Below are positions 8,334 to 45,153 of a stretch of DNA of 64,000 bases, in pieces. Within the stretch, counting starts at the first letter, position 1; the number at the start of each line of letters is the position of its first letter. The stretch is taken from positions 3,658,001-3,722,000 of the forward strand of contig NW_024468912.1 in the NCBI RefSeq assembly GCF_011745365.1. Reading direction: 5' to 3'. The position numbers and the translations under genes were made by a program. The notes beneath the pieces were generated by a model. It searched no databases, was not told the origin of the DNA, and was given only the letters and a program-made list of their open reading frames with translations. This stretch comes from Cryphonectria parasitica EP155. Taxonomy: Eukaryota; Ascomycota; Sordariomycetes; Diaporthales; Cryphonectriaceae.

Positions 8334-9227
8334 ATGCCGCCGCCCCCACCATCGCGAGCCAAGGCGCTGGCCTTTCTTGATGCGAGAAAGATGAGGAAAG
8401 GTGTGAGATGGACCGTCTCAGAAGATCATACGGATGATCACAAGGTCATCAGAAGGCGACGCTTAGCTCACGAAGGGCTATCCAGCTTTTATAAGAATCG
8501 GACATCGGTCACGGCACCTGCTCAGCAGAATCTCAACAGTGATTCCGGTCAGGGCCACCGTCAACAGCAGTCATCTGCTGGCTCTCTATCGCCTCATCTC
8601 GATGCCAATCCCTCGCTTGGCCGAGAGCGTCAGTCCACAATGCGTCTTGCCGAACCAGAGCTAGGCGCGACCTCAAGACCCAAACTGGTGCAGAAGCACC
8701 CAGCGACATTCCAGTGCAGCCTCTGCTCCAAGCGCTTCACGCGTGCCTACAACCTGCGCTCTCATCTGCGTACGCACACGGACGAGCGGCCTTTTGTGTG
8801 CCCTGTCTGCGGCAAGGCCTTTGCCCTGCAGCACGAACGCGAGCGCCACGAGGGCCTCCACTCGGGCGAGAGGAAGTTTGTGTGCAAGGGCGACCTCAAG
8901 GCTGGGGGCCAGTGGGGCTGCGGCCGGAGATTTGCCCGCGCTGATGTCCTCGGACGGCACTTTAGGTCGGAAGCCGGCAGGTTCTGCATCAAGCCGCTCC
9001 TGGACGAGGAGATGCTGCTGGAGAGACAGCGCCAGTGGGGCGAGCAGCGTGGGGGAAGAACGAAACAACAGCGAGCCGTTGATGGCTTCGGAACGGGACT
9101 AGCTATTAGGAACGGAGGTTTACAGGCTCTTGATGACGATACGCTATCTCGGGCGGTGCTGGCGATGCCTCCATCCCCAGTCTACCTGGAGGCTGACGAA
9201 GCGGATGATGCATATATCGGCCAGTGA
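8334..9227 (+). CDS. Crz1-type C2H2 zinc-finger protein with N-terminal 23-residue module (family member 1)
   Basis: A single exon of 297 residues from the preferred ATG (an in-frame extension to 7902 is possible). Residues 26-48 carry the module shared with four other genes in this window (W26, T27, S29, D31, T33, D35, then R40-R43, L44, A45). Two C2H2 fingers start near residues 126 and 154. A third, atypical finger follows (C-G-D-L-K, then W-G-C-G-R-R-F-A-R-A-D, then R-S-E-A-G-R). This arrangement and the phrase IKPLLDEE directly after it are characteristic of Crz1/CrzA, the calcineurin-responsive transcription factor. It is much shorter than a normal Crz1 (usually over 500 residues) and lacks its long N-terminal regulatory region; I see no PxIxIT-like calcineurin site. 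Probably a nuclear DNA-binding protein. It may recognise Crz1-like targets without calcium control (inference). Confidence 0.75.
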   Translation: MPPPPPSRAKALAFLDARKMRKGVRWTVSEDHTDDHKVIRRRRLAHEGLSSFYKNRTSVTAPAQQNLNSDSGQGHRQQQSSAGSLSPHLDANPSLGRERQSTMRLAEPELGATSRPKLVQKHPATFQCSLCSKRFTRAYNLRSHLRTHTDERPFVCPVCGKAFALQHERERHEGLHSGERKFVCKGDLKAGGQWGCGRRFARADVLGRHFRSEAGRFCIKPLLDEEMLLERQRQWGEQRGGRTKQQRAVDGFGTGLAIRNGGLQALDDDTLSRAVLAMPPSPVYLEADEADDAYIGQ

Positions 9228-9713
9228 ACCCCTTTGGTTTGAAAGCTGCGAAAGATGGACGGGAAGGCATTGTACATCATCTATGGACTTGTTTCGTTTA
9301 CGACAATGGTCTCTGCAATATCGCAATCGTTTTCATTTGTATGGTTTCTTCACTACTATTGTACAGTATATGCCCTAAATGACAGGCCTAGCAACTGCAA
9401 TTGGTCACTTGGACCCTTGCACGCCGAGTAGTCAGTCGTAATGGTAGCAGTGTGTCTTCCTTGGGGCCAGCAATGTTTGAGCTGATAAGGTATCCTCGCG
9501 GGAGGATTTTGTACCCACTGAATCCAGTTATATATAGCCCATTAACATCTTACACCAAGGTATAACTTGGGAGCTGCAACACTGCATTTGCATGTTGGGA
9601 TATTCTTTTGATCTTAGTGCCGCCCCAGCCCTTCCAACGTACTTCTACCCAACTCACACATTTCCTACCCACTCTCCCAGTCATTAAATCACCTCTGCTC
9701 CACAGTCACCATC
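9228..9713. other. Intergenic, P450 promoter region
   Basis: No gene. A GATAAG element lies at 9483-9488 and a TATATATA box at 9529-9536, followed by a pyrimidine-rich leader to the P450 ATG at 9714. Confidence 0.5.
9529..9536 (+). promoter_or_regulatory. TATA box of the P450 gene
   Basis: TATATATA about 180 bases before the P450 start codon, in an otherwise mixed sequence. Position is plausible for a core promoter with a 5' leader of about 150 bases. Confidence 0.45.
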
Positions 9714-11438
9714 ATGCCCTTAACCACTGTTGATACCAATCTCATTCTCCTTTTCTTGGTTGGGATTGGCACCCTTACCTACTTCACTGCTGCCAAAATA
9801 TTCCGTCACGACCCTCGAGCCGCCGCTCGCTCCGCAGTCAATTCCCATTGTTGGCCACGTGGTTGGACTATCGCGCTACAAGTTCAACTACTATGTCAGC
9901 CTCAGGTGCGCTCTCATTCTTTTCATATGTTTCACTGAGCTCCGCTGAACCCCAGACCAGCCAGCAGACGGACTCTCCAATCTTTACCATGCCGCTCCCA
10001 GGACAAAAGATGTATGTGGTGACAAAGCCGGAGCTCATCCAGGTAGCGCAGAAACAACACAAAACCCTCGCGTTTCCGCCAATCGAGGCCAAGTTCGCCT
10101 CTCAGGTCTGTGGCGCCAGTCTTGAGGCCCAGGCTATCCTGAACAAAAATGTTAATGGCGACGAGGATGATCATGGGTTGTCCATGGAGTCATATTCTGC
10201 AATGCGGTCTGCACTCAGGCCTGGCTCACAGCTCGATGATATGAACCGCTGCATGATCCGCGAAATAGGGGAGTTCATTGATGTACTGGAGCCAGCCAAA
10301 GGGCAGACCATGGACATTGGTCTGTACTCCTGGCTGAGGGATGTTATTACATCTGCGACTACAAGGTCCGTCTATGGTCCGATGAACCCGTATGATGACA
10401 AGGCAATCGCCGATGCTTTCTGGTAAGTACAACCTAGGATCAGGAATTGGCTGCTAACCGAGCTTCGTATCTAATTTTATTGTTTTATTTATTTTGCTCA
10501 GGGAATTTGAAGCCGGTCTTATGTCAGTTCTAGTTGGCTTCCTTCCTTCAATCACTGCTAGAAAGCCCATTGCAGCTCGGAACAAGGTTGCTAAAGCATT
10601 CGAAGCATATTACAAGGCCGGAGGAGTGCAAAAAGCATCAGCTCTTGCGCAGAAACGATATCAAGCAGAGATGGACAACAATGTCCCGCTGGAAGATATC
10701 GCACGCTTCGAAGTAGGAGGTTCAATCGCAATCTTGGTGAACACGGCGCCAGCTGCATTCTGGACTCTGTTTCTCATTCACTCTCACCCAGGTCTCCTCA
10801 CGGATGTCCGCAGGGAAGTCGATGCTTGCACCGAGACAACGACCGAGAACGGCGCCATCCTCAAAACCATTGACATAACGACTCTGAAGGGAGCTTGTCC
10901 TCTGTTGCTTTCCTGCTACCAGGAAGTCCTCCGTTATTGCTCCATGGGCACATCTGTGCGCGAGGTCATGGAAGACACATGTCTCGACCGATGGCTGCTG
11001 AAGAAGGGCGCCATGCTGCAGATGCCAAGCCGTGCCGTTCATCAGGATGCCAGCCTCTGGGGCTCCAGCGCCGCTGATTTCAATCACCGCCGCTTCCTGG
11101 CTGAAGAGAAGCAGAAACGTCCGGGCGAGGTGTGCTTCCGCGCGTTCGGCGGCGGCAAGACCCTCTGTCCCGGGCGGCACTTCGCCACCAATGAGATCCT
11201 TGCTGTCGTCGCCGTTTTCATTGCGAGACTGGACATGAAGCCTGTGAAGGGGGGTTGGGAGCTTCCCATTACTGCTAATACAAATGTTGCGGCGGTGGTC
11301 ATGGAGCCGGATCATGACGTTCGGGTTGAGATCAAGACACGAAGCGGCTTCGAGGGTACCAAATGGGCCATCAGACTGGACAAGTCGGAGAAGATATTTG
11401 CTATGGTAATGGAGGATGCTGACGCAACGACCGAGTAG
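9714..11438 (+). CDS. Cytochrome P450 with an apparent N-terminal frameshift
   Basis: The body reads as a membrane P450 of about 530 residues. It has an N-terminal hydrophobic anchor, a proline-rich hinge and SIPIVGHVVG; an ExxR motif (YQEVLRY); a PSRAVHQD segment; and a heme-binding loop FRAFGGGKTLCPGRHFA with the Cys ligand. Exons are 9714-9905, 9961-10422 and 10502-11438; the first acceptor is the second AG (CCAGACCAG), which restores the frame. Within exon 1 the anchor and the hinge are in different frames: around 9815-9822 the sequence behaves as if two bases were lost. The exon total is one base over a multiple of three and becomes exact if two are restored. A 61-nt intron 9759-9819 (GTTGGG...GAG) would also rescue the frame but would remove conserved residues with weak splice sites. 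So this is either a recent pseudogene, an assembly error, or an odd splice form. The substrate is unknown. Confidence 0.75.
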
Positions 11439-12388
11439 TTGGTTCTTGTAGCAGCCACTTCATTCTCCACCTAGGAACGCTGAGGCGTTGAAATGGGCAT
11501 CTTGTGAGGGCTATAGTACCTTAATCTCATGTGGTCGCAAGCACTGTGCCTTTCATAGCCTCAGCCAGCTCAGAGACGGGTTCGCTGGACGCTTTTGCTC
11601 CCGTTTCTGACTTTCGGAGAATATATACCTGATATTGGCCTCATGATCTAACCTTCTCATCCTCTTTGTTCCGGAAGCCTTTGCGTCATGGATGAATCTT
11701 CGGCCCACCAACGTTGTACCTATAAGCCACGGACGCGATCATGATATTCTAGCTCTCCCAGGTGCTTGAGGCTGGATGGCTCGCTAATGCGACTGGCAAA
11801 CTACTCCACATCCGCGTGGTCAAGCTAGTAATCAACGTATCGTCGATGAAGCATTATAACAGAACTCCTGGTCCCTTGTTCTAGAGCACGTCGCGCTGTG
11901 GCTTAGTGCGTCCAATAAGGCTGCAGCACCACCTCATACATAGCTCAAAACCAGCAGAATACCCGAGCCTGTGAAGCGATCGAGCGGTTACTATACTTAA
12001 AATGGGCGGCGGCAAAGGAGCGCACAGCTGACAGCCCCCGCTCCGCCACTCGCAGCGACGCGACAAAACCCTGATCATTGTGAGCTATCCATGACTCTCC
12101 GAGCAATTTTTCCATAACAGCAGCAGCACAACTACTATCATTTTGAAGTGCAGCTAGAGCAGACCCTGTCTCAAAGTGTTGTCGGTACATGGCATGGGAG
12201 CGTATCAGCTCTCCAAGTGTCGATATCTTAGGTCTACAGTAAGTCCACTTGCTGTATTATCATATGGTGAGTCTTAATTACCAATACGTATTGAACCCCA
12301 CCCATGCTAATCGGTACCTATTATTATAGAATTATTCCAAGAATCTTACCTCCCGCATCCTGCTCCCCAGACTCCTCAAGCGTTCTCA
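11439..12388. other. Intergenic, nothing recognised
   Basis: Short opposing open frames only, with no domain and no paired splice sites. Presumably contains the P450 3' region and the promoter of the next module gene. Confidence 0.5.
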
Positions 12389-12937
12389 ATGCCTTCCTTC
12401 TTGCCTCCTCTTTTGCGAGCACGAGCCGACGCTATATGTTCCTTTAATGATGACAGGAGGGGGAAAGGGGTACTATGGACTATCTCAGAGGACCATACCG
12501 ACGATAAGACAGTGCTCAAGAAGCGATGTCTAGCCTACGAAAATTCACAGCTCCAGCAGCCTCAATCTAGCAGAAGGGTAAACGATGACAAACGGCAAGC
12601 GGACATAGAAGCGAAGATCAGAGATGATATGGAGAAGGCGATGAGGAAGCAATTGGAGGCGATGCGGGAGGCGCAAGAGTTCGCCAACGCGGAGCTGACC
12701 AGGGCCGCGCAGGCATATCTTGAAGCAAGGGATCTCTCCTTACCACGATATGGGCCATCACGCACATCCACCAGACAAGCGGCACAGACTGAGAGGCTTG
12801 CTCAACGGAGCACTCAGCAGCCTACTCAACGGTCTTCACGGCGATCGACAAAGAGAACTTTCGGGCGTGTGAACGACGAGCCCCTGCGCAACCGACTCAG
12901 CTGTCACAGTCTGACATCGACCGAGAGAGAGAGTTAG
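12389..12937 (+). CDS. 23-residue-module protein, coiled-coil type (family member 2)
   Basis: Single exon, 182 residues. Residues 30-52 align without gaps to the modules of the other members (W30, T31, S33, D35, T37, D39, K44-R46, L48, A49, E51); the position before the Trp is Leu rather than Arg. Residues about 65-115 form a strongly charged helix (IEAKIRDDMEKAMRKQLEAM and onwards) likely to be a coiled coil. The tail is rich in Arg, Gln, Ser and Thr. No signal peptide or membrane segment. No known function. Confidence 0.6.
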   Translation: MPSFLPPLLRARADAICSFNDDRRGKGVLWTISEDHTDDKTVLKKRCLAYENSQLQQPQSSRRVNDDKRQADIEAKIRDDMEKAMRKQLEAMREAQEFANAELTRAAQAYLEARDLSLPRYGPSRTSTRQAAQTERLAQRSTQQPTQRSSRRSTKRTFGRVNDEPLRNRLSCHSLTSTERES

Positions 12938-14276
12938 TAGTGGCAGCGAAATAGTTGTTTCGAATCAACCCACAGGTTCTGATTCCGATCTCGAGAATCT
13001 TATGGCAACACGCTTGTTCTGTTTTCGAACTGTTCGGTCTGCCGTGAGCCGCGGAGCTATAGCTCCGTCATTCCACTATCCAGATGCATGTCTTGTTCCA
13101 ATGCATCCTATTTGGCGCCTCTCATAAGCTGGTAGCTCATTTGCGAAGAGCACACTTCAATCCTCGCGGGAGTGACGTTGACTAGCTTCCCTTGGCCGTC
13201 CTGAAAGAATGGGGCGGAGGTCGGTACTTGAAGCAATTCAGACCTCGATAATCTGTAGAACAAGTTAGTCCAAATCTGCGGATATTATTATCCATGCCTT
13301 GGTCTATTCAATGCCCAATACAACTGCGCCTCACTAGAAAGAAATAGCTTGTGCGCAGATCGGATATAAAAAAAGACATCAAGATCGTCATCATCGAGGA
13401 AGGAATTGTTAGAGTAATAGGCGTTACAAGCACATACAGTAAGTAACACCAATACCAACTCTCCTGGGCCCTCACCAAGTATTCAGTGAGTCGGTCTGAG
13501 GAATTGATGACGATTTGCTTTTTTTTCTATTTTCCCCTAAATGTATTGAGAAGGCCAGTTCTTTCATTGTTATCAGAGGAAATAACCCGCTCCATCGCGA
13601 TCAGCCCGAATTTTGAGCCAATCAATCACAGCTCTCGACGTGATGAAATTCGTCGAAATGCCGTGTGACTTCAATGACAGGAGAACACCATGAATCAATA
13701 GACTCTGGCCCGTATACGCGCAGTGTACAGGGCCTAGTGGTCTGGGGTGTCAAAGGCGTCTTTTCGGTTGGTACAACAGTACCTGAACATCTGAGAAGCA
13801 GCCTGCATAAGTGCATGTTTTAGCAACAGGCACAGCCTCCAAATCTTTGAGTGGGGCGGAGCGTAGGGCGTGCATTCATATAAGTGCTGACTGCAATTTC
13901 CAGAATGCATGGCTGCCACTCGTTCTTCTATGCTTGGCAACATTTCTGATCCGAACCATCGTCAACCGTGCCAGCTGCGTTGAAACATCTTCGTTGTCGC
14001 ACTCCACGTTGTTGCTACTATTAAAAAAGACACTCTATCAGTTGTTCGTGAACCCGACCTTCTTGGACTCAAGTTTTTTGTCGAGAGAACGGCTCACGAA
14101 AATCGAAGTGCTTTGGGAGAGAATGTCAACTTGTTGCGTAAGTTCCACCTCTATATTACTACCTAATGACAGCTGCGCCTGTCCTTCCGATCACAATCGT
14201 TAACTTGTTCGTGCTGGCAGGTGAATTTTGATCAAGGCTTTATTCAGCTAGACCCTTTGGTCTTGCCACGTTTCGC
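12938..14276. other. Intergenic, no convincing gene
   Basis: An open frame at 13811-14203 has a hydrophobic patch but no family features and unlikely codon use; it was not called. The rest has frequent stops on both strands. Probably promoter and leader of member 3. Confidence 0.45.
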
Positions 14277-15068
14277 ATGGCCCGACGTGTCGAGCCGCGC
14301 CTCAGCACAGGCAGCGAAGTCAAGCGAGTCCGTTGGACTATCTCAGAGGACCAAACAGATGACTGTATGGTCGTGAAGAGGCGCCGTTTAGCGTTCATGA
14401 ACCCTCATGGCAAATCACTATCTCATGTGTCGGCTCGAATATTAGTGCCGAGAGTCATTGCCGAGGCAGCACCGTCCTCTGATGCTGAAGAGGCTGACCT
14501 CATACGAAAACCCTCGCTGAAGCCGAGGCCTACACGACCCCAGATGAACGACCGAGTACCTATGCTACCGCCAGGAAGACTCCCGCCAAGAGCGATTCCC
14601 CATGGCCGATCCCCCTTCGCACCTCCGCCCGTGAACAAGCGGCAGGCTTTCATGCCGCTGCCGAGCATCAATTCCTCACGAGCCAGGAGGAGGCAGGCAG
14701 GTGACAACGGGCGAGGGACCCACGACGAGCTGAAGGATCTGTTGGGCCTTTGGCGCGGCGACAAGATGCAGAAGCGCAAGGAGAAGCAGACGTCGGAACG
14801 CAGACACGAGCCCGCCCGTGCTTACCAATTCGGCCGTACCATCATTATCGAGGACGCGGACGGCGAGGTCATCAAGGAATACGAGCTACCGCTGCAACAG
14901 AAGCCTGAGAACCAACCGAGCCAGCTGAGCCGAGACGAGGGCCTACACTTGAGCGTCGGCGACACACGATCCCCGGAACCATACCTGGATGGCAAGATGC
15001 GGTCCGCACGCAACCCCTTCGAGCAGTCAACCACCGGCAGACTGCGCAAGATCTCCAACTTGCCGTAG
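14277..15068 (+). CDS. 23-residue-module protein, proline/arginine-rich (family member 3)
   Basis: Single exon, 263 residues. The module lies at residues 20-42 (W20, T21, S23, D25, T27, D29, K34-R37, L38, A39). It is followed by a long Pro/Arg-rich, apparently disordered part and one ordered-looking segment near residues 181-202 (AYQFGRTIIIEDADGEVIKE) with a strand-turn-strand pattern. The C-terminus is basic and Ser-rich. No signal peptide or membrane helix. A short helical ORF lies 210 bases downstream; I could not join the two in phase. Function unknown. Confidence 0.65.
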   Translation: MARRVEPRLSTGSEVKRVRWTISEDQTDDCMVVKRRRLAFMNPHGKSLSHVSARILVPRVIAEAAPSSDAEEADLIRKPSLKPRPTRPQMNDRVPMLPPGRLPPRAIPHGRSPFAPPPVNKRQAFMPLPSINSSRARRRQAGDNGRGTHDELKDLLGLWRGDKMQKRKEKQTSERRHEPARAYQFGRTIIIEDADGEVIKEYELPLQQKPENQPSQLSRDEGLHLSVGDTRSPEPYLDGKMRSARNPFEQSTTGRLRKISNLP

Positions 15069-15279
15069 AATTACCAAGAATCAAAGTCAATAGAAGAGCT
15101 AGCAAGTGTTATGCCTGGTTACAGTGCGTGCGCGCCTTGGGTGCTTTTGGAGAACGGGGCGAAAGCTGATATCATTTGCAGATACAAAATACGACAACGA
15201 CCAATCTCTATTGGCAGATAGCACGGAGTCTGATGGCGAAGGGTTTCTGAAGAGATATCCGGTTCTTCATATCCCAATC

Positions 15280-15486
15280 ATGCCACACCTGGCTCAAACC
15301 CCCGTCCTGCTAAACCGCCTGTACAGCGCAGCCACTCAATATCTGCAAAAGATGCGTCAGACACTGGCCAAGTACCCCAACATGGCTCAGAATCAACAGC
15401 TTCTACAGCATTTGCAGCAGCTGAGCGCCGCGCAGCAGACGTGCACCATTTATATGCGCCCCGGTCAGGATGGCGGTGAATCATGA
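15280..15486 (+). CDS. Possible small helical protein or 3' exon
   Basis: A 68-residue frame from an ATG gives an amphipathic, Gln-rich helix (LQKMRQTLAKYPNMAQNQQL and onward). The frame stays open upstream to a TTTGCAG acceptor-like site at 15175-15181, so it could be a downstream exon. The obvious donor at the end of member 3 (GTAGAA overlapping its stop) does not match in phase. No family recognised. The call rests on helical regularity alone. Confidence 0.3.
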   Translation: MPHLAQTPVLLNRLYSAATQYLQKMRQTLAKYPNMAQNQQLLQHLQQLSAAQQTCTIYMRPGQDGGES

Positions 15487-16817: not shown

Positions 16818-17297
16818 ATGATTAGTCCCTTCCCAGCCCGGGTGGTGCCTCGCAACCCCCTTAAGCGAGCGAGAAATGATACAGCAGTGCGTTGGACCAT
16901 TTCAGATGATTATACAGAGGACCGAAAGGTATTCAAGAAGCGCCTCCTCGCCTTCGAAGGAAAATCACCCAGCGGACCAACGCCAGGTCCCAAGGTCGCC
17001 CCAGTGCCACTTTCCTCGTCCGAACCGCAGAGCACCGAGTATATTTCACCAGGCTCTGGCAGTGGAGAGACGCAGAAGGATCCGAAGCGGCGAGGGCGAT
17101 TTGTCTGGCTCCCGCCCACACCAGCCTCTATACGCCAAAGATTTAGTCGGCCGGCCCGACAGCAGAAGTCTATCAACACCATTAGCCTTGAGACGCCTAT
17201 ATTCAAGAACTCGTACTTCAATACGGCGCACTATCACAATCCAGACTTTAGCCCAGAGGAGTGGAAACCGGACTTTGGTGACAAAGGAAAGGACTGA
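16818..17297 (+). CDS. 23-residue-module protein (family member 4)
   Basis: Single exon, 159 residues from the ATG at 16818 (in-frame extension to 16680 is possible). The module is at residues 26-48 (W26, T27, S29, D31, T33, D35, K40-R42, L44, A45, E47), with conservative changes E to D at position 4 and D to E at position 8. The rest is Pro/Ser-rich with a basic patch (PKRRGRFVWLPPTPASIRQR) and an aromatic C-terminal part containing Asn/His/Tyr. No signal peptide or known domain. Confidence 0.65.
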   Translation: MISPFPARVVPRNPLKRARNDTAVRWTISDDYTEDRKVFKKRLLAFEGKSPSGPTPGPKVAPVPLSSSEPQSTEYISPGSGSGETQKDPKRRGRFVWLPPTPASIRQRFSRPARQQKSINTISLETPIFKNSYFNTAHYHNPDFSPEEWKPDFGDKGKD

Positions 17298-17779: not shown

Positions 17780-20458
17780 TCAAGACTCTGGATCCTTTCG
17801 TATGCCAGTCAGCTCTGCCCGCTTCGTGGAAGACTCGCCTTGTGTCTCCTCGACATATCTCTCAAACTCCTTGACAACTTTGATACAATCACGGATATGG
17901 CTCGCTGAGAATGTTTCGTTGTCAAACAAAGCTAGTTGTCTCGCAGTCCGTATGGCGTTTCGAATCTGCCGACCGTTGATCTTGTGCTGGGCGAGGCTCT
18001 GGGTGCTACTCATCAGGCCCTTGACATCAATGTCCAGACCTGGATCCTGGTCCTTCTCGTCTGCGAGTTTCTGGAAGAAGTTCGACCAGATCTCCTCGCG
18101 GTCATCTTGTTCTAGAGTGGGATAGTACATAGCGAGATGCATGCGAGATTTGAAAGCCTCGTCAAAGGTTCCGACTGTGGACAGATCAGTCGCCGAACGC
18201 TTTTTGATCTCTTTTTAATAGTGCTACGACCGTAGCAGCCGTAGCAGAGAACTTACCTCTGTTTGAAGTGAGTATGAGAATTCCATCGTAATACTCCAGC
18301 GCCCTGAGGAAGACTGATACCAGGGCGTTCCGCTTCAAATCAGTCGGAACCCTCTCCTCCATAAAGACCTCGCATTCGTCCAGCAGGACCACTAACCAGA
18401 AGTCAGACTGACAACGAGATACTTAATCGGAACTCTTTCTTTGGGTGACTAACCTGCTTTCCAGATGTTTCCCAGGTAGAAGATGTGCTCCAGGCTCTTC
18501 TCAACAATCTCGGGGTCCGTGCCAATATCCCCTGAGGTCAGGCGATACAAGGGCCGCTTGGAGAACTCCGCCACGCTCTCTGCGGTCAACGTTTTGCCGG
18601 TTCCTGGTGGGCCATGCAAGAGTATGACTGCCGCGTTCATAAATAGTCGTCAGCTTGTTTGCTGTGCATAGAACCTCACGGTCAGGAGGGACGAGGAAGG
18701 GCATTCTTACTGAGGCCATTGCCTTTGCTTTCGATGATGTCAGCTGAAGAGCTGTTCACGACATGATTCATCACCAGTGCTTGTATGAGTTTCTTCTTCT
18801 GCTTGTCAAAAACCAGCTTCTTGAATGCTTCGGTGTCCCAATTGATGTCTTGAAGATGCTCTACAGCCAAAGTTTCTACGTACGATTTCGTTAGCACATG
18901 ATCCAGTTTACTGGAGGGAGCGGCGGGAAGGAGCAGTGCATACTCCACTTCTTGTCATGGAATCTGAACGCTTTGATGGTCGGCGGGAGAAGAAGGGTGA
19001 AATTCCCAGGAGGCGGGCCCTCGCTCTGCATCTCCTCCGGAGTCAAATTGCCTCGCCAAGGAAGGGTATCTGCCTGATTGCGAACTTCATCCTCTTCACC
19101 ATGGAGAGCATTGTATGTTTCCATGTCGATCATATATCGCGGGTTGCTCTAGAACAAGGTCAGCTCAGGGATATTCAATGGAGACTTAAGATAGGCATAT
19201 ATGCTCATCCAACGCTCTTTTCGTGGAAACATACCACTTGAATGTCGAACCCTCTTTTGGGGCCCGTAGAGGTGACCAGCCGTCCGTTCCGGCACTTCCA
19301 GAAGTATTCCCCTCGTTGTTTCAGCTTTTCCTCCAGCCCGGTTCTGTCAAATCGTAGCGGAATAACTGGCAGTGAGGAGATGAGCACCTTCTTGCCCAGC
19401 TCACATTCTGTTGGCAGGTGGACCGTGATACTCTGCGATTTCCGGTGAAAGGCGCCGTCGAAGGTCCAAGTCTCGCAGTCGAGCTTAATCGGCAGCACAT
19501 TTGGTCGTGGACAGTTTTTAATCGCGAGTGCAACCTCATGACCGTTCTGATGGACCGCGACAACATCTCCTGGCGCGAAGAGCTTGTGGAAGTGGGCTTC
19601 TGTGAAATAACCCTGCTGGAAGAGACAATCGGCTTCATCGTATGCACTGCCAAACCCATCCTGCAAGTAGTCGAGTAGAACACCAATTTGTTGCCCGTCC
19701 TTGTGATCGAGTTCCCTCCGACGAGCCTCAAGTAAATTCCGCGCATGGTAGAGCCGCAAGTATGGCGCATTCAGATTGTCTGCATTGTCCCAGTTTGCCA
19801 ACAAGGCAGGCAGCTGCTGTTGCACTCGAGTATGGGACATCTGCCGTGCTGCTTCCATAGCATCAATCAAATCCGAGGATATGAGCGTGATTTGCTCTCG
19901 TGTCGGAACTGCCGCTTGTGTTTCAGAGACGATGACGGAGAGGTATGGCCTGACTAGAGCCGGAATCTTTGCATGAGAAGACCGTGCCACGAGTCTTTCG
20001 AATTGAGACGAGATTTCCAGGTTTTCATGGTACTCCATGCAGTCGTAATATCTCTCCACCACAAAACTGATACTAGGATCGTCTTCTCTGTAAGACTGCA
20101 AATCCTTAATGGGTTTCTTGCCTCGTAGAGGATGGGTCTTGTTGTCTCCGGCGTACAGACGGGGCTCGTCCAAAAAGGATGCCGTGGGTACGTGGTGAGC
20201 ATGTGAGTTGGAATCTCCAGAACAGAGGACTTGATGGACGATGAGGGCCCTGGGTTGGACACTAGGTGCTTGCATAACCTCTTTGGTGTGATGCGACACT
20301 TCTTTCAGCCCATTTGTCTCATGGTGAAGCTTGTCGAGTTCATCTTTGGCCTCTGCCTCAGAATCACTCTCAGTATTCAAGTATGTCTTTCGGCGCTTGC
20401 AATTCAGATGATCGTCCGGTGACGGAGCCCTCCTCGTGGCCATGATGTTTGTCGGCAA
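17780..20458 (-). CDS. Large AAA ATPase of the fungal DUF7025-plus-AAA type
   Basis: Six exons (20458-19235, 19148-18944, 18875-18711, 18627-18454, 18391-18257, 18174-17780) splice in phase to 765 residues; the next in-frame Met is at 20443. A hydrophilic, charged N-terminus precedes a roughly 350-residue mixed region of the kind seen before AAA domains in many fungal proteins (DUF7025-like). The AAA core has Walker A GPPGTGKT at 537-544, Walker B VVLLDECEVF with D594-E595, sensor-1 region LILTSNR and an arginine-finger context FDEAFKSR. Walker B is followed by Cys where many relatives have Ala, but the catalytic acidic pair is intact. Such genes are usually multicopy, variable between strains and of unknown role. 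It neighbours an NLR-like gene divergently, consistent with an accessory region. Confidence 0.8.
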
Positions 20459-21108: not shown

Positions 21109-23021
21109 ATGACTTCCGAAAAATCGAATCAAAGTCAAGAAAACAAGGCAACAGGCAACGTTCTTGCTCAACAATTGCATCCTTTTCTCCCGGCCCCCAG
21201 CAGTGCTGTGCAGAGGTGGACCGGAGAAGCAGCAGGGTATTTCTGAAGGCCTGGTCTCCTGCAGTCAGTCTGTGGCTGACTACTCAGCAGATCTAGAGAC
21301 ATTGTCAAAGAGGCGCACGATGAAGCCATTGCAAACCTCAAAGACAAATTTCGGGGAAAAGACGAGGTTCTCACCTGGCTTGACAAGTCGAACACCATAG
21401 AAGAGGTCCGCGACGAGATCCAACAGCTCGAACAGAAGTACAAGGATGAAGTCAAGTTCGAGAAGGCTAGGAACGGGTTGCGCAAGTTCTCCTCGGTTGT
21501 TCTTCACTACGGGACCGCGCTGGATATGATTACCCAGCAGACACCTCAGTATGTGAGCCTGGTCTGGGGCAGTATCAAATTCTTCCTGACGGTGCGTGTC
21601 AAGGCCGACACCGGTCTCTCCCAATCTTTCTGAGTACCGGAAAGATGCTTCAAACATAGCATGCATTGAGACAAATTGAACTGATCCCAATTGCAGGCTG
21701 TGATGAACCATGCCAAGCACGTGGCTGAATACACCGACGCTCTGGTACACATCGGGAACCTGCTGCCTCGAGCGCAGCTCAACGCGGAGCTGTACCAAAA
21801 CAACTACGTTAAAGAGGCTGTGGCAAGGCTGTATGAGCAGATCCTGGTATTCTTCAGGCCCGCTATCAAGTGGTACTCCTCGTCTCTCCAGCGGGCGATG
21901 ACAGCTATTGTGTCCCCGTTTGAGTCCGGGCTCAAGGATACTGTTGCCAAGATTCAAACCTGCGCCACGATCATGGACGCGGCTGCTCGTTCGTCAATGC
22001 AGATCGAGCTAAGGAAGACTTACGACATCGTCTCCTGCCAGCTTCCGAACCTGCACTCGTGGCAGGGTGATATGTCTGCAGGAGTTTCAGAGATCCGCCA
22101 GGATCAAAAAGGTTCACGTTCCCCCTCCTTTCTTCGCGATACTGGCGCGGTGTGTTAACTAACATTCATGACACAGCAATGCTTGACATTTTGTCCTCAC
22201 TTTGTGACAAGTCTCAGGTCACGGAGCGGCGTGCTGGCGACATCCAAGCTCGCGTGCGCGGGATCGAGTTCAGGACGGAGCTCGAAGCACTCAAGCCTCG
22301 CGTCCTGCCCTCCAAGGCTCTGATAGGGCAGCGGAGCGTCAGCAGAGCGACACGACCATGGACCATGCAAGCCCAAGACATTGTCACTTTGATCAAGAGT
22401 ATTAGCGACTGGATGGAGTCGCCAGACTCAACCCTCTTGGTTGTTGATGCTATGCGAGCCAAGGAGATCGCATCGGAACTGATTGGTGGTGTTCTCCAGC
22501 CCAAAGTTAAATGGATCTGCTGGTATCTCCCCGACAGAGATGAGCCTTTTACCGTAGCAGGTGTGCTGAGCAGTCTAGTATGGCAGCTGTACGAGCTCGA
22601 TCCTGCCAAAGTAGCCGGCTGTCTGAATGGCAACCTCAACCGCACCGATGAGGATCAAATGACGGAGATCCTACGACTGATCCTCGTACAGCTGAGTAGC
22701 TGCTACGTCGTCATTGACGCAGGAGACGCGGGTCAGTCTGTGGACAACACAAGCCAGCTGGAGAGGCTCAACGACAGACTGCAGGATATCATCGACCGCA
22801 CTTCGGTGGAGAACTGCCTTGTTAAGGCACTTCTCTTTGGATCTGGTATCTCATTACAGCCCGCAAAGCCTTCGGTGGCATCGACGAAATCCTCGAGGAA
22901 AATCATCTCGCTTCGGCCTCCGGCTCCCATTCCAGTTTCTCGTCAACGGCCAGGTGCGAGACACTTCTTCCAGGATCCTGGATGGCTTAGCTTGCAGAGA
23001 AGAGTAGCGAAGGAGCCATGA
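21109..23021 (+). CDS. NLR-like protein with DUF7708-type N-terminal domain, no P-loop seen
   Basis: Four exons (21109-21236, 21288-21591, 21697-22111, 22177-23021) give 563 residues. Residues about 100-250 show a helical domain (YGTALDMITQQTPQYVSLVW, KFFLTAVMNH, LPRAQLNAELY, RPAIKWYSSSLQRAM) like the DUF7708 region in front of NACHT domains of fungal NLRs. The following part resembles the later half of a NACHT region (IKWICWYLPDRDEPFTVAGV-like text, SSLVWQLYEL, CYVVIDAGDAG in Walker-B position), but no GxxxxGKS/T P-loop is present, and there are no ankyrin, WD or TPR repeats. The C-terminal 60 residues are low in hydrophobic pattern and may come from a frame change. Likely a truncated or degenerate NLR, or an accessory partner of one. 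Confidence 0.6.
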
Positions 23022-38269: not shown

Positions 38270-40187
38270 TGGCAAGTCTCGATGTACTGTTTTGCATATA
38301 CTATAGTACAAACAAACAATGAACGGGATTTCTGTGTAAGAATATTAAAATAAAAAAACGAACCCAGGGCGCTCGAATGAGTGGACGACATTGAATGGAT
38401 GATGAGTTGCCGTTGTAGACAGATGTCGCGGTGTGAATGGAGATTCCGAATCCTTGCCGTGCCAGCTGCAGCCCGTGTTGCTTCTCGTCACAGATGAGGC
38501 GCTCTCCTTTGTGGGGGGAGGGAGGGGGTCGATGTTGTATTATAATGGTTGTACATGGCTTTCAGCTGCGAAGAGAGGGGAGATCTTTTGCCTGTTAGTA
38601 CGTACGTACATATGTATGTACAAAATAGTCCGCACTTGCAGCTGCGCCCCCACATCTCAGCATGTATGCGGCCAAGATGCCATGCCAGTAAGTAGGGTTT
38701 CATTCAGTCCCAGTATCCTCTTTGTCTTGCTTTGCCATTGCTTAAAATTGTCCTTTACGGTGATCAGAGTCCGTATCAGACCATGCTCATTCAATCAGTC
38801 AGAGCAGAGAGGGGGAAAGTCTTTTCAAGGTCAAGAACCAAGGGAAACGGTGGTGGTGGTAGTGGTCGTCGTCGTTGTCTCTCCGGTGGTAAAAAAAATG
38901 CCCAGCCGCTGTATGGTACAAAGTACATGTAGACTGGCTGCTGCTTATTTTAGGCGTGTGAGTAGCGATCCTTGTTGCCCCATCGCGCCAAGCAAGGTCT
39001 TTTGAGTTTGTCCCCACTTCCCTTGCTCTGGAGAGAACGAGAACCCTGGATTGATTGAGATCTCATCATCAGCGCGCCAGAGAGGAAGTTGTCTGTCCAT
39101 CCGAAGCTCCAGACCAGACCATGTGGGGGACTGCAGCATGTGGTCTCTCTCTTCTCCTTCTCCTCCTGCCCTTGTTTGACCCCGTTCTTTTTTTCAATAT
39201 TTTTTTTTTTTAATATTTTATTTGCCCCCCCTTCGTTCTTCTCTCACGATCGAATGTTGGTCTGTTACGACTCTAGGGGAAAGTACGGGGCGCAATCCCA
39301 CACTGGGTTTCTCCTTCCTCTCCCTATCTCTGTCTCTCCACATCCACACATACAACATACATCCTTCCCTCCTCGTCCTCGCCCATCAGTCATCCTCACC
39401 TAAGAGAACGACCACCCCCCTGACCCGCATATCCACGTTCCTCACCCTGCATCTTGCGTTTTTCCCGGCCCGCTCTTGGCAACCAATACTCTTTCTTTTC
39501 GCCCTCCAAATCCCAGGACACCACCAATCGAGACGGACACCAGGCCGCGGCTGCAGCTAGCCATTGCGTGCTGCGACGACCTCGATCCCTCCCCGTACGC
39601 ATTCACTCACCACTACCTGGCTGGAGCCGACGATCCATTACGAAGTCTGGGCCGTCAGCTCTCCGGACGATCCATTGCTCAGCTACTACTCTTACTACTA
39701 CTGTACACACACGCTCACACCCACACGCCCGCCTTGCATCCCCCACTGCACGGGTTCCCGACTGCGACTGCGCCTTACGACTACGGGGTAATACTTTTGT
39801 GCGTGTGTGTGCGTGTATGGTCCTGCAAGCAACCTGTAAGCCTTGTTGATCAAGGCCCTTGCCGAATTACCTACTTCATCCCCTACTTGCCTACCTATCG
39901 GCTGCTCGCGTGAGCCGCTGGTGTCCGGTCCTCCATCCTACCGTCGCAGCCGTCCGGGATCAGCTCGTGAGTGTTCTCGCCCCCCCCCCCCTCTCTTCAA
40001 ACTCCTCTCCCTTCCTTCCTCTGTTCGTGCCATGTCACGACCTATAGATGTAAATATATGTATATAAATATATATTTATATCCACCAGCTACGCAACCAC
40101 TGCCACTACTGGTTGCTGCTGTTGCTGGTGCTACGACTGCACCGTCGCATCTGGCAATCATCCACATGTATACAGACAGTACTTGTC
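38270..40187. other. Long intergenic / 5' leader of the RasGEF gene
   Basis: Almost 2 kb, no supported gene. Contains a T-rich tract near 39189-39222, CT-rich leaders from 39300 on, a C run near 39979-39989 and an AT-rich segment near 40048-40080. The long pyrimidine-rich sequence suits a long 5' leader, possibly with a leader intron. Confidence 0.45.
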
Positions 40188-43100
40188 ATGGCATTCTTCA
40201 GAACCCAAACCAAACCCCAATCCAAAGACCAGCATGTTTACGATAACATCTTATCATCAGCCTCCACGTGCGTCAGCCCTGCGGCCAACCGCCGTGCTCC
40301 CCGCCGGAGGGTCCTTGAACCCAATCCTTCCTCATCCTTCGTCACGATACCCGAGGACCCACAAACGACCCTCGCTGCTCCTCCGACGCCTCTGCCGACG
40401 ACGCCGCCGCCTCACGAAGAGGCCGATTCCTCCTCCTCCTCCTCCTCCTCCCTGCGCCCTATCCTGTCCGCTGCCTACGATCCCTTCCTCCACCGACACG
40501 TCGATGCGCGAGGCCTGCCCCGGAGCTTCACCTGCCCTCACCCGATCCCAACGCGCCATGGGACTGCGCTGCAGCCCTGGCCTCCTCGCAGAGACTCGCT
40601 GATGAACGCGACATCAGGGGTACGCTTTTAGCTTTTATACACACACACAGAGACACACACACACACACACAAATTCACCGGTCCAAACAAAAGAGAGCCG
40701 AGCCTGCTACTGCTTTCTTCTCCTTTCCTAAAGTCAGGCAAGGGGAGAGGAGTCGCATATAACAGGTGGTCGGTTGATGGCACACACGCACACACAGATA
40801 CACAGACACACGGGAGAAGAGGCTTAGATTATAGCTGGCTGACCAACCCTGTCGTGACCCTTTTTTTCTATAAAGACGCCGCCGCTGTTTCTGCGCGACA
40901 GCGTGATCAAGTGCAATACCATGGACTCCATCAACATCGCAATCATAGGAGCCAATGGCGTGGGCAAGTCGTCCTTCGTGCAGCGCGCGCTTAAGCTGCC
41001 ACAGCCGCCAACCAGCGCCATCATCACCTTTAACTGGACCGAGGCCGATGGCACCCAACACACGGTCCACACTTTCGAGGTGGACCTGGAGGGTTTCGAC
41101 CTCGAGATGAACGAGCCGATTCGCTGGCCGAGGCAGGCCAATGGCCAGATGACCCCAAGGGTCGACGGCACCATGGTCCTATACGACGTGACGAGCAAAG
41201 AGAGCATCAAGCTGTTACCCAAGACTTTCTGTGGGTCAAGAGCCTCTCGCATTCATTAATCTATATCTTGCGTGTGGTTGCTGATTCTTCTCTGCTTGTT
41301 CTTCTTTCCATTAGCTTCTCTTTCCGTTAGCAACTATACCTCCTTCCTCGTTGCGACCAAGTGCGATGCTCCTGAGGATGTCCGCGAGCTCGACACCGCC
41401 AGCGTCTCCGCCGCCTTCCCCTCCGTGATGGCCAGTTTCTGCACTTCTGCGACCTCGCCGAACAGTCAGAGAGAGTGTCTACAGGCTATGTTACGAACAG
41501 TTGTCGGTAGTCATCGAAAAGGTACACACGTCCCCAGCTGCTCATTCTCCTCGCAAGGCAATATAGGGCGGCGACGACTTTAGGGGATCATGATCTTGAA
41601 GAGACGCAACCAGAACTCGTAGCTAACGCCGTATTTTTGGTGGCCTAGGGGTTGATAGGTCGGACACTGCCAGTCAACGCAGGCGTGCTGCTTCAGCCGC
41701 AAATTTAGAACCTTTACCAGATCCGCTAAACAATGGCCGCCCCGAATCCCAGCACAGCAAGCACAGCAGGGCAAGCTCTGACCTGTCGCTACTAAAGGGA
41801 TTCTCCTCGGGCTCGAATGACAACTATTATAGGACCTCATCCGCACGCCCGCCGCGCGCCTTCTCAGGAGGTAATCTTGGGGATGAGGTCCTGAACCCGC
41901 CGGTGTCGACCCAGCTTCGGCAGTCAGGCGTACGATTAGACATCGGCGACCCTTTTAATGAAATGGACGAATCGGACGTCGACTCCTTCCGCACGTCGAT
42001 GACAGAAGACCTACCGATACTGCAGCGAAGCGATGAGAATTTCATGGAGCGACAGGCCAAGACCATGGGCGTCACGTTTGATGATCTAGTCGACAGACTT
42101 CTCGCGCCGCGGATGACAAGGGCAGACCAAAACTTTGCAGACGTCTTCCTCTGTCTCTATCGTAAATTCGCCAGACCTGGACACCTGTTCTCGGCCATCC
42201 TCGCCAGGCTGGAGCGCGCCAAAGACGACAAGACAGCACACTATCTGATCAAGAAGGGCACGCAGATGCGCATCATCGAGGTCGTAGCCAAATGGGTTTC
42301 ACTCTACCCCGGCGACTTTGCCCGGCCCCAGACGAAGAAGACGCTCGAGCGCTTTATAGCACACCTGGCAACCGAGCCGGCTTTCCTCGCAGCTGCGAGC
42401 ATGATGAGGGCTCAGCTAGAGAATTTCGTGACAGAGGACGACGACACCGGGTGGGCACATGCCGATGACCCACCAGCAGAGGACGAAGGCGCAGAGGCTG
42501 CCGCGGAGTCCAAAGAGCTGGAAGTGAATCTGGGCGGGTCGATGGATTCCCTCAAAATACGGGACCCGGCAGAATCGGCCGAGGTACGTCGGCCGTCAGC
42601 GGTGTCCGAGCTTTCGTCCCACGGGGAACGAGATCTCGGGACGGGTGAAACGAATTACCAGTACTTCACGTACGAGGACTACGAGCGGGAGGCGGCAACA
42701 ATGGTGCCACAGGCCTCCTTGCCGCTCAGCAAGGTGCGGTATCACATTTTTATGGACCTCAGCGCGGATGAGCTCGCCGAGGAGATCACGCGCATCGACT
42801 GGGTCATGTTCAGCAGCGTGCGGATCCGCGATTGGGTGCGGCACGTCAGCTTGTCGTCGGCGGAGAAGGAAAAGTGCCGGTCTCTCAAGAACGCCAACCG
42901 GCTGATCTCGCACTTCAACCACGTGGCCAAGTGGGTGCAGAACATGATCCTGATCCGCGACAAGGCGAAGCACCGGGCGCCATGTCTCGAGAAGTTTATG
43001 ATCATTGCGCACAAGCTGCGGAAGCTGAACAACTACAACGGGCTGGGCGCAATCGTCGCGGGCCTCCAGAATGCCAACATCGCGCGCCTGCGTGCCACGA

Positions 43101-43645
43101 TGGCCGGGGTCCGCCCTGAGGTCTGGAAGCAGTATCAGAGCGCCGAGAAACTCATGCTGCAGGCCAAGTCGTCGTTTGCGTACCGCCTTGCGTGGGAGAA
43201 CAGCCCACTGCCGCGCATACCATACATGGCGCTGCACCGTAAAGACCTGACGGCTGCGGAGGAAGGAAACAAGACGTTCGTGGGGCCGAATGGCGATCGG
43301 ATCAACTGGAAGAAGTTCGAGATCCTAGGCGAGATCTTGCTACCCATCATGAAAAGTCAGGGGGCGCCGTACGTCGAGGTGAGCAGGCAACACCAGGCAT
43401 GTAGGGATCTGGTACTGGATTGTCGGATGGAGCTGGATGAAGATGTAAGTGTGCTCGCTGCTGGGTTTTGCCATCGCGGTTCATTATTACTTTTATGGGG
43501 TGTGAAGTACTTGGTGGGCTGACTATGTTTTCATTCACAGGCACTCTACCAGCGAAGCAAAGCCGTCGAGCCTGGACCGGGGGCCGCGACCAGCAGCACG
43601 TCGGATTTAAAGAAGAAAACGCTGGGTTTCCTGAAGGGCGGCTGA
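40188..43645 (+). CDS. RasGEF protein with an N-terminal Ras-like GTPase domain
   Basis: Five exons (40188-40619, 40876-41230, 41315-41521, 41649-43444, 43541-43645) give 964 residues. Residues 1-150 are Ser/Pro-rich and disordered. From about 160 a Ras-like fold begins (INIAIIGANGVGKSSFVQRA, the G1 P-loop) and later shows a divergent G4 TKCD. A linker follows; a RasGEF-N region lies near residue 470 (VTFDDLVDRLLAPRM, FADVFLCLYRKFARPGHLFS) and a CDC25-type catalytic domain from about 700 (RIDWVMFSSVRIRDWVRH, NANRLISHFNHVAKWV, LRKLNNYNGLGAIVAGLQNA). The enzyme should load GTP onto a Ras-type GTPase in cell-growth or polarity signalling. Having both a GTPase-like and a GEF domain in one chain is known in some filamentous fungi. 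The first intron (256 nt) holds a CA repeat. Confidence 0.85.
40638..40671. repeat. Interrupted (CA)n repeat in an intron
   Basis: ACACAC units broken by an AGAG block, inside the first intron of the RasGEF gene. Confidence 0.8.
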
Positions 43646-44499
43646 ACGGTCATATAAACTGTAAAAAGGTAAAACGAACGACAGAGACAAACAGACAGCA
43701 AGGACTGTCTAACGTATTTGCGGCAGATTAATTACAGAGCGATTTTATTATCATTGGACTGACTTGGGCATGGCACCACGTCAACCCTTTCATTTCTTTC
43801 ATTTTCTTTCTTGTTTTAAACCTTGAATATAGAGATATGAAGGGTTTACCCAAATTACATCGTGGCCTTTGTTTTGCCCTCTCCCAGTCTGACTTTTTCC
43901 AAGGCCGGTTAGCCATGTTGCTAAAACTCTGTCTGGGTCCAGACCAGCTCATTTGTATGCCTAGTCGGCGAATATGTGAAGTAAACACGCTTGGAGGTGC
44001 GTTCTCATTGGATTCTCGCTACCTGCTGCATGGTGACGCAGCGCCTGCGCCCGCCACCCAGCCGTTTTCCCTGTCCGACTGAGAATACACGTGCAAGCTA
44101 CAATACCAGCGCAAGGCGGGGGCCAACTTCCTTACCCCGGTCTACCTCGTTTTCCCTCTGCCTTTTCTCAAAGCACGTCGAGACTTCGTCATGAAAATTG
44201 CCTGCTTCCACCAAACAAACCCCCTGAGCGAGAAGCTTATAGACAGACTGTTACCAACGATTGACACACTGGGAAAAGGCCAGAATCCGGTACTTTTCAG
44301 TTGACTGCACGAACAATTCACCTGTTTGTCTGCAGCCTTGCGCGCAACACCAGCGTGGGAGAGTTGCACACAGACTAACTACAGAACAATAATGGAGGAG
44401 GCACATGGCTCTCAGAGACTGTAAGCACACACCTTCCAAGCCATCATCTCTAAAACGACCTCTCTGCCTAGCAATATATCTTGCGGGCTCGTTACTTGC
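43646..44499. other. Intergenic, no supported gene
   Basis: About 850 bases with short frames only; contains the 3' region of the RasGEF gene and the promoter of family member 5. Confidence 0.5.
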
Positions 44500-45153
44500 A
44501 TGGCGCATCCTGAACCCGCATGCAGGGGTAGCCCACGTCGCGTGCCGAGGGATCCTCGTGGCGCCGTTACCAATATTCGATGCGTGCGGTGGACGGTCTC
44601 TGAGGACCAGACGGACGACCAGGCCGCGCAGAGGAGGCGCTGTGTTGCGGCTGAGGGGGGACTGGCGGTGGTGTCTCGGCGGTCGTCTCGGGCTACCGGG
44701 CGCCTTGATATTCGACAGAAGCAGCGGCAGCAGCAGGAAATAAAGAAAGACAACTTACGGAAGAACTCATTGCCAAATCCAAGAGTCACACCTAATATCA
44801 GGGACAGGATAGATGGCCTGGCGGTAAGCCATCTAGCGGTGGCCCCTCAGCGCTCTGCGCGTACAACGGGGCGGGGACGGAACTGACGAGGCAAATAGGT
44901 ACACCAAAGCGGCGGCTATGACCCCCTGGCCTCGGCGGACCTCATCGACGAACTGGTCCGAGATATGGACGCAGTAGGCCCTATGAAGGAGGGATTATCC
45001 AAGTACTGCCTCAAGTACTCGATGTTGTTGCGGCTCCTCGAGAAAGAGAGGAGGTTGGCGGCCCGCATCCGAAGTGACCAACTCAACCGCCAAGTTGCGA
45101 ATATGATAGACACACTGAGAACCGAGGTCGAGAACCAGAAGTGGCTGGCGTAA
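44500..45153 (+). CDS. 23-residue-module protein, two-exon coiled-coil type (family member 5)
   Basis: Two exons (44500-44823, 44899-45153) join in phase 0 (GTAAGC donor, ACTGAC branch, ATAG acceptor) to 192 residues. The module lies at residues 31-53 (W31, T32, S34, D36, T38, D40, R45-R47, V49, A50, E52) and aligns without gaps to the four copies at 8.3-17.3 kb, some 27 kb away. Residue 12 of the module is Ala rather than Val and residue 18 is Val rather than Leu, so this is the most divergent member. The second exon encodes a long charged helix (YSMLLRLLEKERRLAARI, RQVANMIDTLRTEVENQK) suited to a coiled coil, recalling member 2. No signal peptide. Function unknown. Confidence 0.7.

What the first reader, a model, noticed from the sequence alone, without database searches (positions are those of the whole stretch)
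8334..45153. Five genes share an ungapped 23-residue N-terminal module that I cannot assign to any known domain
Proteins starting at 8334, 12389, 14277, 16818 and 44500 each carry, 19-30 residues after the start, a 23-residue block that aligns without gaps. Counting the Trp as position 0, W0, T1, S3, D5, T7, D9, R16 and A19 are invariant in all five. Position 2 is Ile/Val, 4 is Glu/Asp, 8 is Asp/Glu, 14-16 are basic or Gln-flanked, and 18 is Leu/Val. Outside the block the proteins are unrelated: zinc fingers in one, coiled coils in two, Pro/Arg-rich sequence in two. Five independent copies in 64 kb, all on the plus strand, mean that the module is under protein-level selection and has been shuffled or kept while the rest diverged.
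Basis: seen in the sequence. Interest (0 to 1): 0.88.

Follow-up and report, generated by a model that had tools for sequence, protein, structure and literature searches.

The report
Fungal tag fused to captured gene-pieces
In the chestnut blight fungus, nine genes begin with the same short, strongly conserved protein tag, and most of them end in different pieces that look copied from other genes of the same fungus, a home-made family of fusion genes whose function is not yet known.

Summary
The five blocks have the listed invariant residues and score 69-80 against each other; the next-best peptide in the window scores 22.5. The window is from Cryphonectria parasitica, whose genome search shows nine copies. 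The module is conserved as protein (mean pS 0.73, pN 0.24), and DNA identity falls to background outside it. Pfam and PDB give no match for it.

The new finding is the tails. In 7 of 9 genes the tail matches a piece of a distant gene (E 4e-84 to 4e-4): a CRZ1-like zinc-finger factor, NHA1 (set inside a piece of gene X), a MED15-like gene, an otubain tail, a coiled coil and two Cys-containing pieces. Two sister genes share front and module but not tails. The MED15-like piece apparently kept an intron, so copying was probably DNA-based. Frames are open, but tail substitutions fit neutral drift.

Best reading: a conserved N-terminal tag on repeatedly captured tails, perhaps partial mimics of the donors. 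The family is well supported; the function is inferred.

The parts
8334..9227 (+). chimeric gene g8334: module plus CRZ1-like zinc-finger tail (297 aa)
   Evidence: ORF; hit to C3:2134246-2135034 at E 3.8e-84; C2H2 Pfam hits
8403..8471 (+). module copy 1 (VRWTVSEDHTDDHKVIRRRRLAH)
8565..8616 (+). first stretch matching the CRZ1-like gene
   Evidence: 84.6% over 52 bp to L042
8641..9049 (+). second stretch matching the CRZ1-like gene, zinc fingers included
   Evidence: 93.4% over 409 bp to L042; dS 0.13, dN 0.048
12389..12937 (+). chimeric gene g12389: module plus coiled-coil tail (182 aa)
   Evidence: ORF; residues 53-107 hit C1:6077729-6077896 at E 3.5e-4
12470..12538 (+). module copy 2 (VLWTISEDHTDDKTVLKKRCLAY)
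12545..12709 (+). coiled-coil piece resembling an ORF with a sub-threshold ubiquitin-like (ULD_2) match; least certain window capture
   Evidence: 34 bp at 88% DNA; ULD_2 23.9 bits, cutoff 24.5
14277..15068 (+). chimeric gene g14277: module, piece of gene X, piece of NHA1, further piece of gene X (263 aa)
14328..14396 (+). module copy 3 (VRWTISEDQTDDCMVVKRRRLAF)
14487..14618 (+). piece of unnamed gene X (C1:4614866)
   Evidence: E 1.9e-8; 73% over 135 bp; dS 0.58, dN 0.33
14716..14928 (+). piece of the cytoplasmic tail of the NHA1 antiporter gene
   Evidence: 83% over 213 bp to L043; Nha1_C E 3.9e-22; dS 0.35, dN 0.14
14982..15056 (+). gene X appears to resume after the NHA1 piece (25 codons compared)
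   Evidence: tblastn alignment to L012 runs on past the NHA1 piece; dS 0.18, dN 0.30
16818..17297 (+). chimeric gene g16818: module plus piece of an otubain tail (159 aa)
   Evidence: hit to C2:2185658-2185963 at E 3.5e-5; that ORF carries Peptidase_C65, E 6.9e-42
16887..16955 (+). module copy 4 (VRWTISDDYTEDRKVFKKRLLAF)
17202..17262 (+). stretch matching the C-terminal tail of the otubain ORF
   Evidence: 75% over 61 bp; 25 codons compared, pS 0.96, pN 0.23
44500..44823 (+). g44500 exon with module (EP155 model M406DRAFT_322279 starts at 44392 and splices past this ATG)
44584..44652 (+). module copy 5 (VRWTVSEDQTDDQAAQRRRCVAA)
44899..45153 (+). g44500 second exon; no source found elsewhere in the genome
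   Evidence: splice in frame, same residues in P0001; genome search gives itself only; DUF5340 match below cutoff, 19.6 of 27 bits

Best explanation
A family of nine chimeric genes in Cryphonectria parasitica. Each starts with a conserved 23-residue N-terminal module: a short acidic Ser/Thr-rich stretch followed by a short basic helix (helix from a low-confidence model). Tails downstream of the module were acquired by copying coding stretches of distant genes, in frame, several times and at different ages. SHOWN: the module and its protein-level conservation; copy-to-source matches for 7 of 9 genes, three of the eight matched pieces short and less certain; one piece lying inside another; two sister genes with one front and different tails. 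SUPPORTED: copying at DNA level, because the MED15-like piece appears to keep an intron. INFERRED: the module acts as an address or docking tag (acidic, CK2-like sites beside a basic cluster would suit a regulated nuclear signal), and the tails act as partial mimics that compete with the donor proteins for partners or sites. My odds: captured-tail family 0.9; DNA-level copying 0.75; mimic or competitor function 0.3.
For: Nine copies and no tenth in any list (counts are lower bounds). Module pS 0.73 vs pN 0.24; DNA identity drops outside it. Sources: CRZ1-like E 3.8e-84, 409 bp at 93%; NHA1 E 4.8e-28, 213 bp at 83%; gene X E 1.9e-8, on both sides of NHA1; a Cys-rich ORF on C6 E 2.9e-17; MED15-like E 1.8e-14; 88-aa ORF on C2 E 4.4e-6; otubain tail E 3.5e-5; coil E 3.5e-4. 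Seven of these eight sources lie on another contig than the copy; the C6 one is 1.24 Mb away on the same contig. Copy-source dS ranges from 0.13 to 1.16. g12389 and L038 share 5' DNA, module and linker (69% over 276 bp), then differ. The MED15-like piece matches in two blocks of 162 and 293 bp; the DNA between reads as an intron in the source. No stop in five pieces, 445 codons, against 0 of 2000 neutral simulations free of stops. GTAAGY sites at -79 to -150 in 5 of 9 genes. One member is an annotated EP155 gene.
Against: Amino-acid changes in the tails are what a neutral copy would show: combined dN/dS 0.396 against a simulated 0.426, 39% of simulations at or below the observed value. Tail function is therefore not shown. 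The open-frame result is biased, because pieces were taken from open ORFs, and alone it is weak for CRZ1-like, NHA1 and X (no stop in 41%, 29% and 33% of simulations); only the C6 (7%) and MED15-like (3%) pieces lean. Only one of nine genes was found in the protein database, and expression of the others was not seen. The coil, otubain and C2 matches are short. Two of nine genes lack a significant source; for these only the second exon was searched (L039 has a weak match, E 0.019). The second X piece has dS 0.18 against 0.58 for the first, which does not sit well with one capture. The MED15-like source needs a frame change or further intron between the second and third compared segments that I could not explain, and the copy has no KIX_2 hit. 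AlphaFold finds no fold (mean pLDDT 54.8). 4 of 9 genes lack an upstream donor-like site. No base rate for genes without the module was measured.
Confidence: 0.55

Rival explanations
1. The module and the linker after it do the work and the tails are passengers: captured DNA is tolerated as long as it leaves the frame open, and drifts.
For: Module strongly constrained while tail dN/dS fits a neutral copy; tails share no common property that I could see; the model is disordered outside one helix.
Against: No stop over 445 codons of five pieces, 0 of 2000 neutral simulations (with ascertainment bias); the MED15-like piece stays open on both sides of its presumed intron; the zinc ligands of the CRZ1-like piece are kept (comparison).
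Confidence: 0.3
2. A non-autonomous transposon (Helitron- or Pack-MULE-like) carries the module ORF and picks up gene fragments as such elements do.
For: Gene-fragment capture is a known habit of these elements (abstract starts in the listing); copies lie on four contigs.
Against: No shared DNA among the nine upstream (600 bp) or downstream (800 bp) flanks except the g12389/L038 pair and one 20-bp match; conservation is confined to the module frame; five copies lie in one 36-kb stretch, all on one strand. Element ends were not scanned for.
Confidence: 0.08
3. The proteins are sensors in the way of plant NLR integrated decoys or fungal allorecognition genes: the tails are bait pieces of regulators that a mycovirus or non-self product would attack.
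For: Donor list leans to regulators (CRZ1-like, MED15-like, otubain, NHA1 tail); the species has well-studied vegetative incompatibility (passages of PMC7849911).
Against: No HET, NACHT or NLR domain in the 8 of 9 members scanned; no link to a vic locus was found or tested.
Confidence: 0.07
4. Coincidence or a DNA-level repeat: short look-alike blocks without common origin or without coding role.
For: The block is only 23 residues and the rest differs.
Against: Leave-one-out scores 69-80 vs 31.8 in the best of 50 shuffles; pN far below pS; one member annotated as a gene.
Confidence: 0.02

Closest known systems
Pack-MULE and Helitron gene-fragment capture (plants, animals, some fungi)
   Same: Pieces of host genes from elsewhere, introns included, are joined into new chimeric open frames.
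   Different: Here the constant part is a short protein module under purifying selection; no common flanks were found. [quoted passage not shown]
Chimeric (retro)genes such as Drosophila jingwei (recalled)
   Same: New gene from parts of old ones with an open frame.
   Different: A family of nine with one constant N-terminus and changing tails; the one informative piece appears to retain an intron, so is probably not mRNA-derived.
Plant NLR integrated decoys (recalled)
   Same: Constant framework fused to varied pieces of host regulatory proteins.
   Different: No NLR parts in the members scanned; the constant part is a 23-residue module; no sensing role shown.
CK2-site plus nuclear-localisation-signal (CcN) motif (recalled)
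   Same: Acidic Ser/Thr stretch some ten residues before a basic cluster.
   Different: The invariant T, S, D, A positions and the W/Y reach beyond a simple localisation signal; localisation untested.

Membership tests
Any described protein domain (Pfam) | Module scores above a family's curated cutoff | tested here: not met
   No match reaching cutoff on the module in 8 of 9 members: five window proteins at E<=1 (25 of 26 families listed for g8334), L040, L041, P0001 and spliced L038 at E<=0.1. Best overlapping: DUF5879, 12.4 bits, cutoff 27. L039 not scanned
Any solved structure (PDB) | Sequence match of the nine-member profile | tested here: not met
   0 of 177635 distinct sequences at E<=1
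Helitron / Pack-MULE type element | Copies share DNA ends or flanks around the captured pieces | tested here: not met
   No shared flank DNA at E<=0.05 among 9 loci except the sister pair g12389/L038 and a 20-bp match L041/g44500
Helitron / Pack-MULE type element | Target-site duplications, terminal hairpin or inverted repeats | not tested
   No scan for element ends was made
Retrocopy (mRNA-derived) chimera | Captured piece lacks the introns of its source | tested here: inconclusive
   Only the MED15-like piece is informative: copy and source match in two blocks separated by 189 and 298 nt, with donor-like sequence at the same place, which speaks against a retrocopy; splice sites are inferred. 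The CRZ1-like and NHA1 pieces lie in uninterrupted source frames and cannot tell
CRZ1-type transcription factor (g8334) | The zinc-finger block with all ligands | tested here: met
   84 of 92 residues identical to the source, ligands kept on inspection; C2H2 Pfam hits. The name CRZ1 is recalled, not given by a call
CRZ1-type transcription factor (g8334) | N-terminal regulatory region of the source gene | tested here: not met
   The DNA match starts at residue 78 of the copy; most of the N-terminal part of the 783-aa source frame is absent
NHA1 antiporter (g14277) | Transmembrane exchanger domain | tested here: not met
   Only Nha1_C 196-274 of 464 matched, no Na_H_Exchanger hit; the source ORF has both
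Fungal NLR / HET allorecognition protein | HET, NACHT or NB-ARC domain | tested here: not met
   None in the 8 of 9 members scanned by Pfam

The most novel reading that the evidence does not exclude
A fungal gene-building system in which a short conserved N-terminal tag keeps acquiring pieces of the cell's own regulatory genes, yielding a set of tagged partial mimics (DNA-binding fingers without the source's N-terminal region, a mediator-like piece, an antiporter tail, a deubiquitinase tail) that tune or guard the donor pathways.
Probability: 0.22. Interest if true: 0.88.

Novelty: new variant of a known kind. Interest (0 to 1): 0.7.

Why it matters
New genes made from pieces of old ones are known, but usually as single cases or as cargo of transposons. 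Here one short protein module has been kept by selection while its tails took up pieces matching eight other genes, five of them with strong matches, at visibly different divergences, and one tail holds a second piece inside the first. That gives a series of gene fusions of different age in one experimentally tractable fungus. It makes two open questions testable: how captured fragments become proteins, and whether partial copies of regulators act as their competitors.

Tried and rejected
Known-domain match: Pfam and PDB gave nothing for the module. A Myb/SANT reading (W-T..E-D) came from memory and has no Pfam support. DNA repeat: speak against it. Transposon carrier: no common flanks; element ends were not scanned for. 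Prokaryotic or viral origin: 18 pattern matches in viral contigs and 15 in genome contigs, none confirmed. Rfam found nothing in the window at gathering scores. Relatives in other fungi: three protein searches gave one protein, this fungus's own copy of g44500 (two searches gave none). Since the other members of this very genome were not found under those queries either, absence elsewhere says little. Selection on tails: the dN/dS simulation did not separate them from neutral copies. The MED15-like source matches KIX_2 below cutoff (E 0.0021, 18.4 of 25.6 bits), its Q-rich ORF has no Pfam hit, and the copy has no KIX_2 hit, so the name is tentative. A PDB look at that exon gave only weak matches, E 0.087 and above. 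The AlphaFold model is of low confidence and was not used for a fold search. The 88-aa ORF matching L040's tail may belong to a small zinc-binding family, so that capture is among the least certain, together with the coil.

Literature: none of the listings of ten searches showed a description of this family, for the gene name and two motif strings, returned no paper. Seen: passages of PMC7849911 and PMC7565894, abstract and section list of PMC4289320, listings for the rest.
Full report
What was checked. The five ORFs and their 23-residue blocks are real and align without gaps. Scored against the other four by BLOSUM62 they reach 69.0-79.5; the best non-member peptide of the window scores 22.5, the reversed window 26.2 and the best of 50 3-mer shuffles 31.8. 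A degenerate DNA pattern for the core hits five places in the 43.8-Mb genome, all of them these, with no hit for its backwards control.

Where it comes from. The window is G000:C4:3658001-3722000. A profile of the nine proteins found one protein at E<=1 among 7310 candidates: M406DRAFT_322279 of Cryphonectria parasitica EP155, on a contig of 5,118,729 bases, where our C4 has 5,117,500. It is g44500, spliced as I inferred (intron 44824-44898) apart from its first ten residues, which come from an upstream start. So the genome is C. parasitica, EP155 or a strain close to it.

The family has nine members. Protein queries found four more modules: C4:4124769 (L038), C5:4312400 (L039, about 25 kb from the contig end), C1:358534 (L040) and C6:2484731 (L041). 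Searches list all nine, eight, seven, and none a tenth; the tool calls such counts lower bounds. Over nine, T1, S3, D5, T7, R16 and A19 are invariant, and position 0 is Trp (7) or Tyr (2).

The module is held as protein. Over 36 pairs and 23 codons mean pS is 0.73, near saturation, and mean pN 0.24. DNA identity in register, leaving out the sister pair g12389/L038, is 0.76 and 0.74 in the first two 15-nt steps from the Trp, 0.53 and 0.65 in the next two, 0.36 at +60 and 0.26 at +75; upstream it is 0.47 at -15, 0.32 at -30 and 0.28 at -45. AlphaFold on six sequences gives mean pLDDT 54.8, with one helix at residues 35-47 of g16818, the basic half of the module. As far as this shows it is a short linear module, not a folded domain.

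The tails match pieces of other genes. For seven members the whole protein was searched in the genome, for L039 and g44500 only the second exon. g8334 residues 2-263 hit C3:2134246-2135034 at E 3.8e-84; the DNA matches over 52 bp (85%) and 409 bp (93%). The source frame of 783 aa is a CRZ1-like factor (name recalled), and the copy lacks most of its N-terminal part. g14277 carries a piece of an NHA1 tail (E 4.8e-28; 213 bp at 83%) and a piece of an unnamed 658-aa frame, gene X (E 1.9e-8; 135 bp at 73%). The X alignment resumes after the NHA1 piece, so NHA1 appears to sit inside X; the second X piece is only 25 codons. g16818 ends in a piece like the C-terminal tail of an otubain-type Peptidase_C65 ORF (E 3.5e-5). 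g12389 holds a coil like that of an ORF with a sub-threshold ubiquitin-like match (E 3.5e-4). L041 ends in a piece of a Cys-rich 502-aa frame (E 2.9e-17). L038 ends in a piece of a Q-rich, MED15-like gene (E 1.8e-14). L040 ends in a short piece like an 88-aa frame on C2 (E 4.4e-6). That is 7 of 9 genes and eight sources, seven on another contig than the copy and one 1.24 Mb away on the same contig. L039 exon 2 has only a weak match (E 0.019) and g44500 exon 2 none. E-values are for one genome.

How the captures were made. In L038 the copy and source match in two blocks (162 and 293 bp) with 189 and 298 nt of unaligned DNA between them. The source exon ends at ..AAT|GTGAGT and the copy at ..CAT|GTAAAT, and both are open and homologous again in the next block. 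This is what copying of genomic DNA with an intron would leave; the splice sites are inferred from sequence. Between the second and third compared segments the source frame does not run on without a further intron or a frame change, while the copy reads through; I could not settle that. g12389 and L038 share 5' DNA, module and linker at 69% over 276 bp, then have different tails. The coil match of g12389 begins in this linker, so the order of events there is open. Synonymous divergence from the source differs by piece: 0.13 (CRZ1-like), 0.35 (NHA1), 0.58 (first X piece and MED15-like), 0.95 (coil), 1.16 (C6), saturated for the otubain piece. In g14277 the first X piece is older than NHA1 by this measure, but the second X piece has dS 0.18 on 25 codons, so the order rests on the nested position and not on dS.

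Are the tails selected? Against my reading: with half of dS placed on a neutral copy and a source at omega 0.1, five pieces (445 codons) give a combined dN/dS of 0.396 against a simulated median of 0.426, with 39% of 2000 simulations at or below the observed value. Amino-acid changes alone thus do not show constraint. For my reading: no stop occurs in any of the five, while 0 of 2000 simulations were free of stops in all five; piece by piece the share without a stop is 41% (CRZ1-like), 29% (NHA1), 33% (X), 7% (C6) and 3% (MED15-like). These pieces were picked from open frames, which favours that outcome. The coil, otubain, L040 and second-X pieces were left out of this simulation. In the CRZ1-like copy 8 of 92 residues of the finger block differ, ligands kept on inspection. 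By recalled finger numbering three of the eight fall at positions -1 and 3 of finger 2 and 3 of finger 3, so binding may have changed.

Gene structure. GTAAGY sites lie at -79 to -150 from the ATG in 5 of 9 members; the other four have no GTRAGY site within 350 nt, and such sites average 0.25 per 350 nt in the window. Upstream and downstream flanks share no DNA at E<=0.05 apart from the sister pair and one 20-bp match. This leans towards ordinary genes, some with a 5' intron, and against a mobile element with common ends.

Interpretation. The best account is a chimeric gene family with a constant tag and acquired tails. What the proteins do is inference. The donors include a stress transcription factor, a mediator-like subunit, an antiporter tail and a deubiquitinase tail, and these copies hold candidate interaction parts without the source's membrane, protease or N-terminal parts. 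I therefore favour partial mimics that compete with the donors, at about 0.3, with passengers behind a functional module as an equal rival.

Limits. No other Cryphonectria genome could be searched, expression could not be seen, and no base rate of such captures in genes without the module was measured. The literature searches cover open-licence PMC papers only.

Noticed in passing
window 9714-11438 (+): Cytochrome P450 gene (PF00067) whose N-terminal reading seems to pass from one frame to another near 9820, so the frame is interrupted there or the sequence has an error (the likeness of the N-terminus to P450s is recalled).
   Followed up: partly
window 17780-20458 (-): Fungal AAA ATPase gene parts (AAA_lid_13 and DUF7025) directly downstream of g16818.
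   Followed up: no
window 22152-23018 (+): NPHP3_N match below cutoff (20.8 of 24.8 bits), suggesting a NACHT-like fragment.
   Followed up: no
window 44392-44526: EP155 gene model M406DRAFT_322279 starts at an upstream ATG and splices past the ATG at 44500; which start is used is open.
   Followed up: partly
window 8641-9049: Finger-2 and finger-3 residues of the CRZ1-like copy at or near DNA-contact positions (recalled numbering) differ from the source (R>L, D>E, K>E, A>V) while the zinc ligands are kept.
   Followed up: partly
L040 4205-4642 (-) and L076: Small W-Y-C-Y-Y-C-x-x-G-P-M...C-x2-C zinc-ribbon-like motif shared by the L040 tail and an 88-aa frame on C2; may be a small family of its own.
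   Followed up: no
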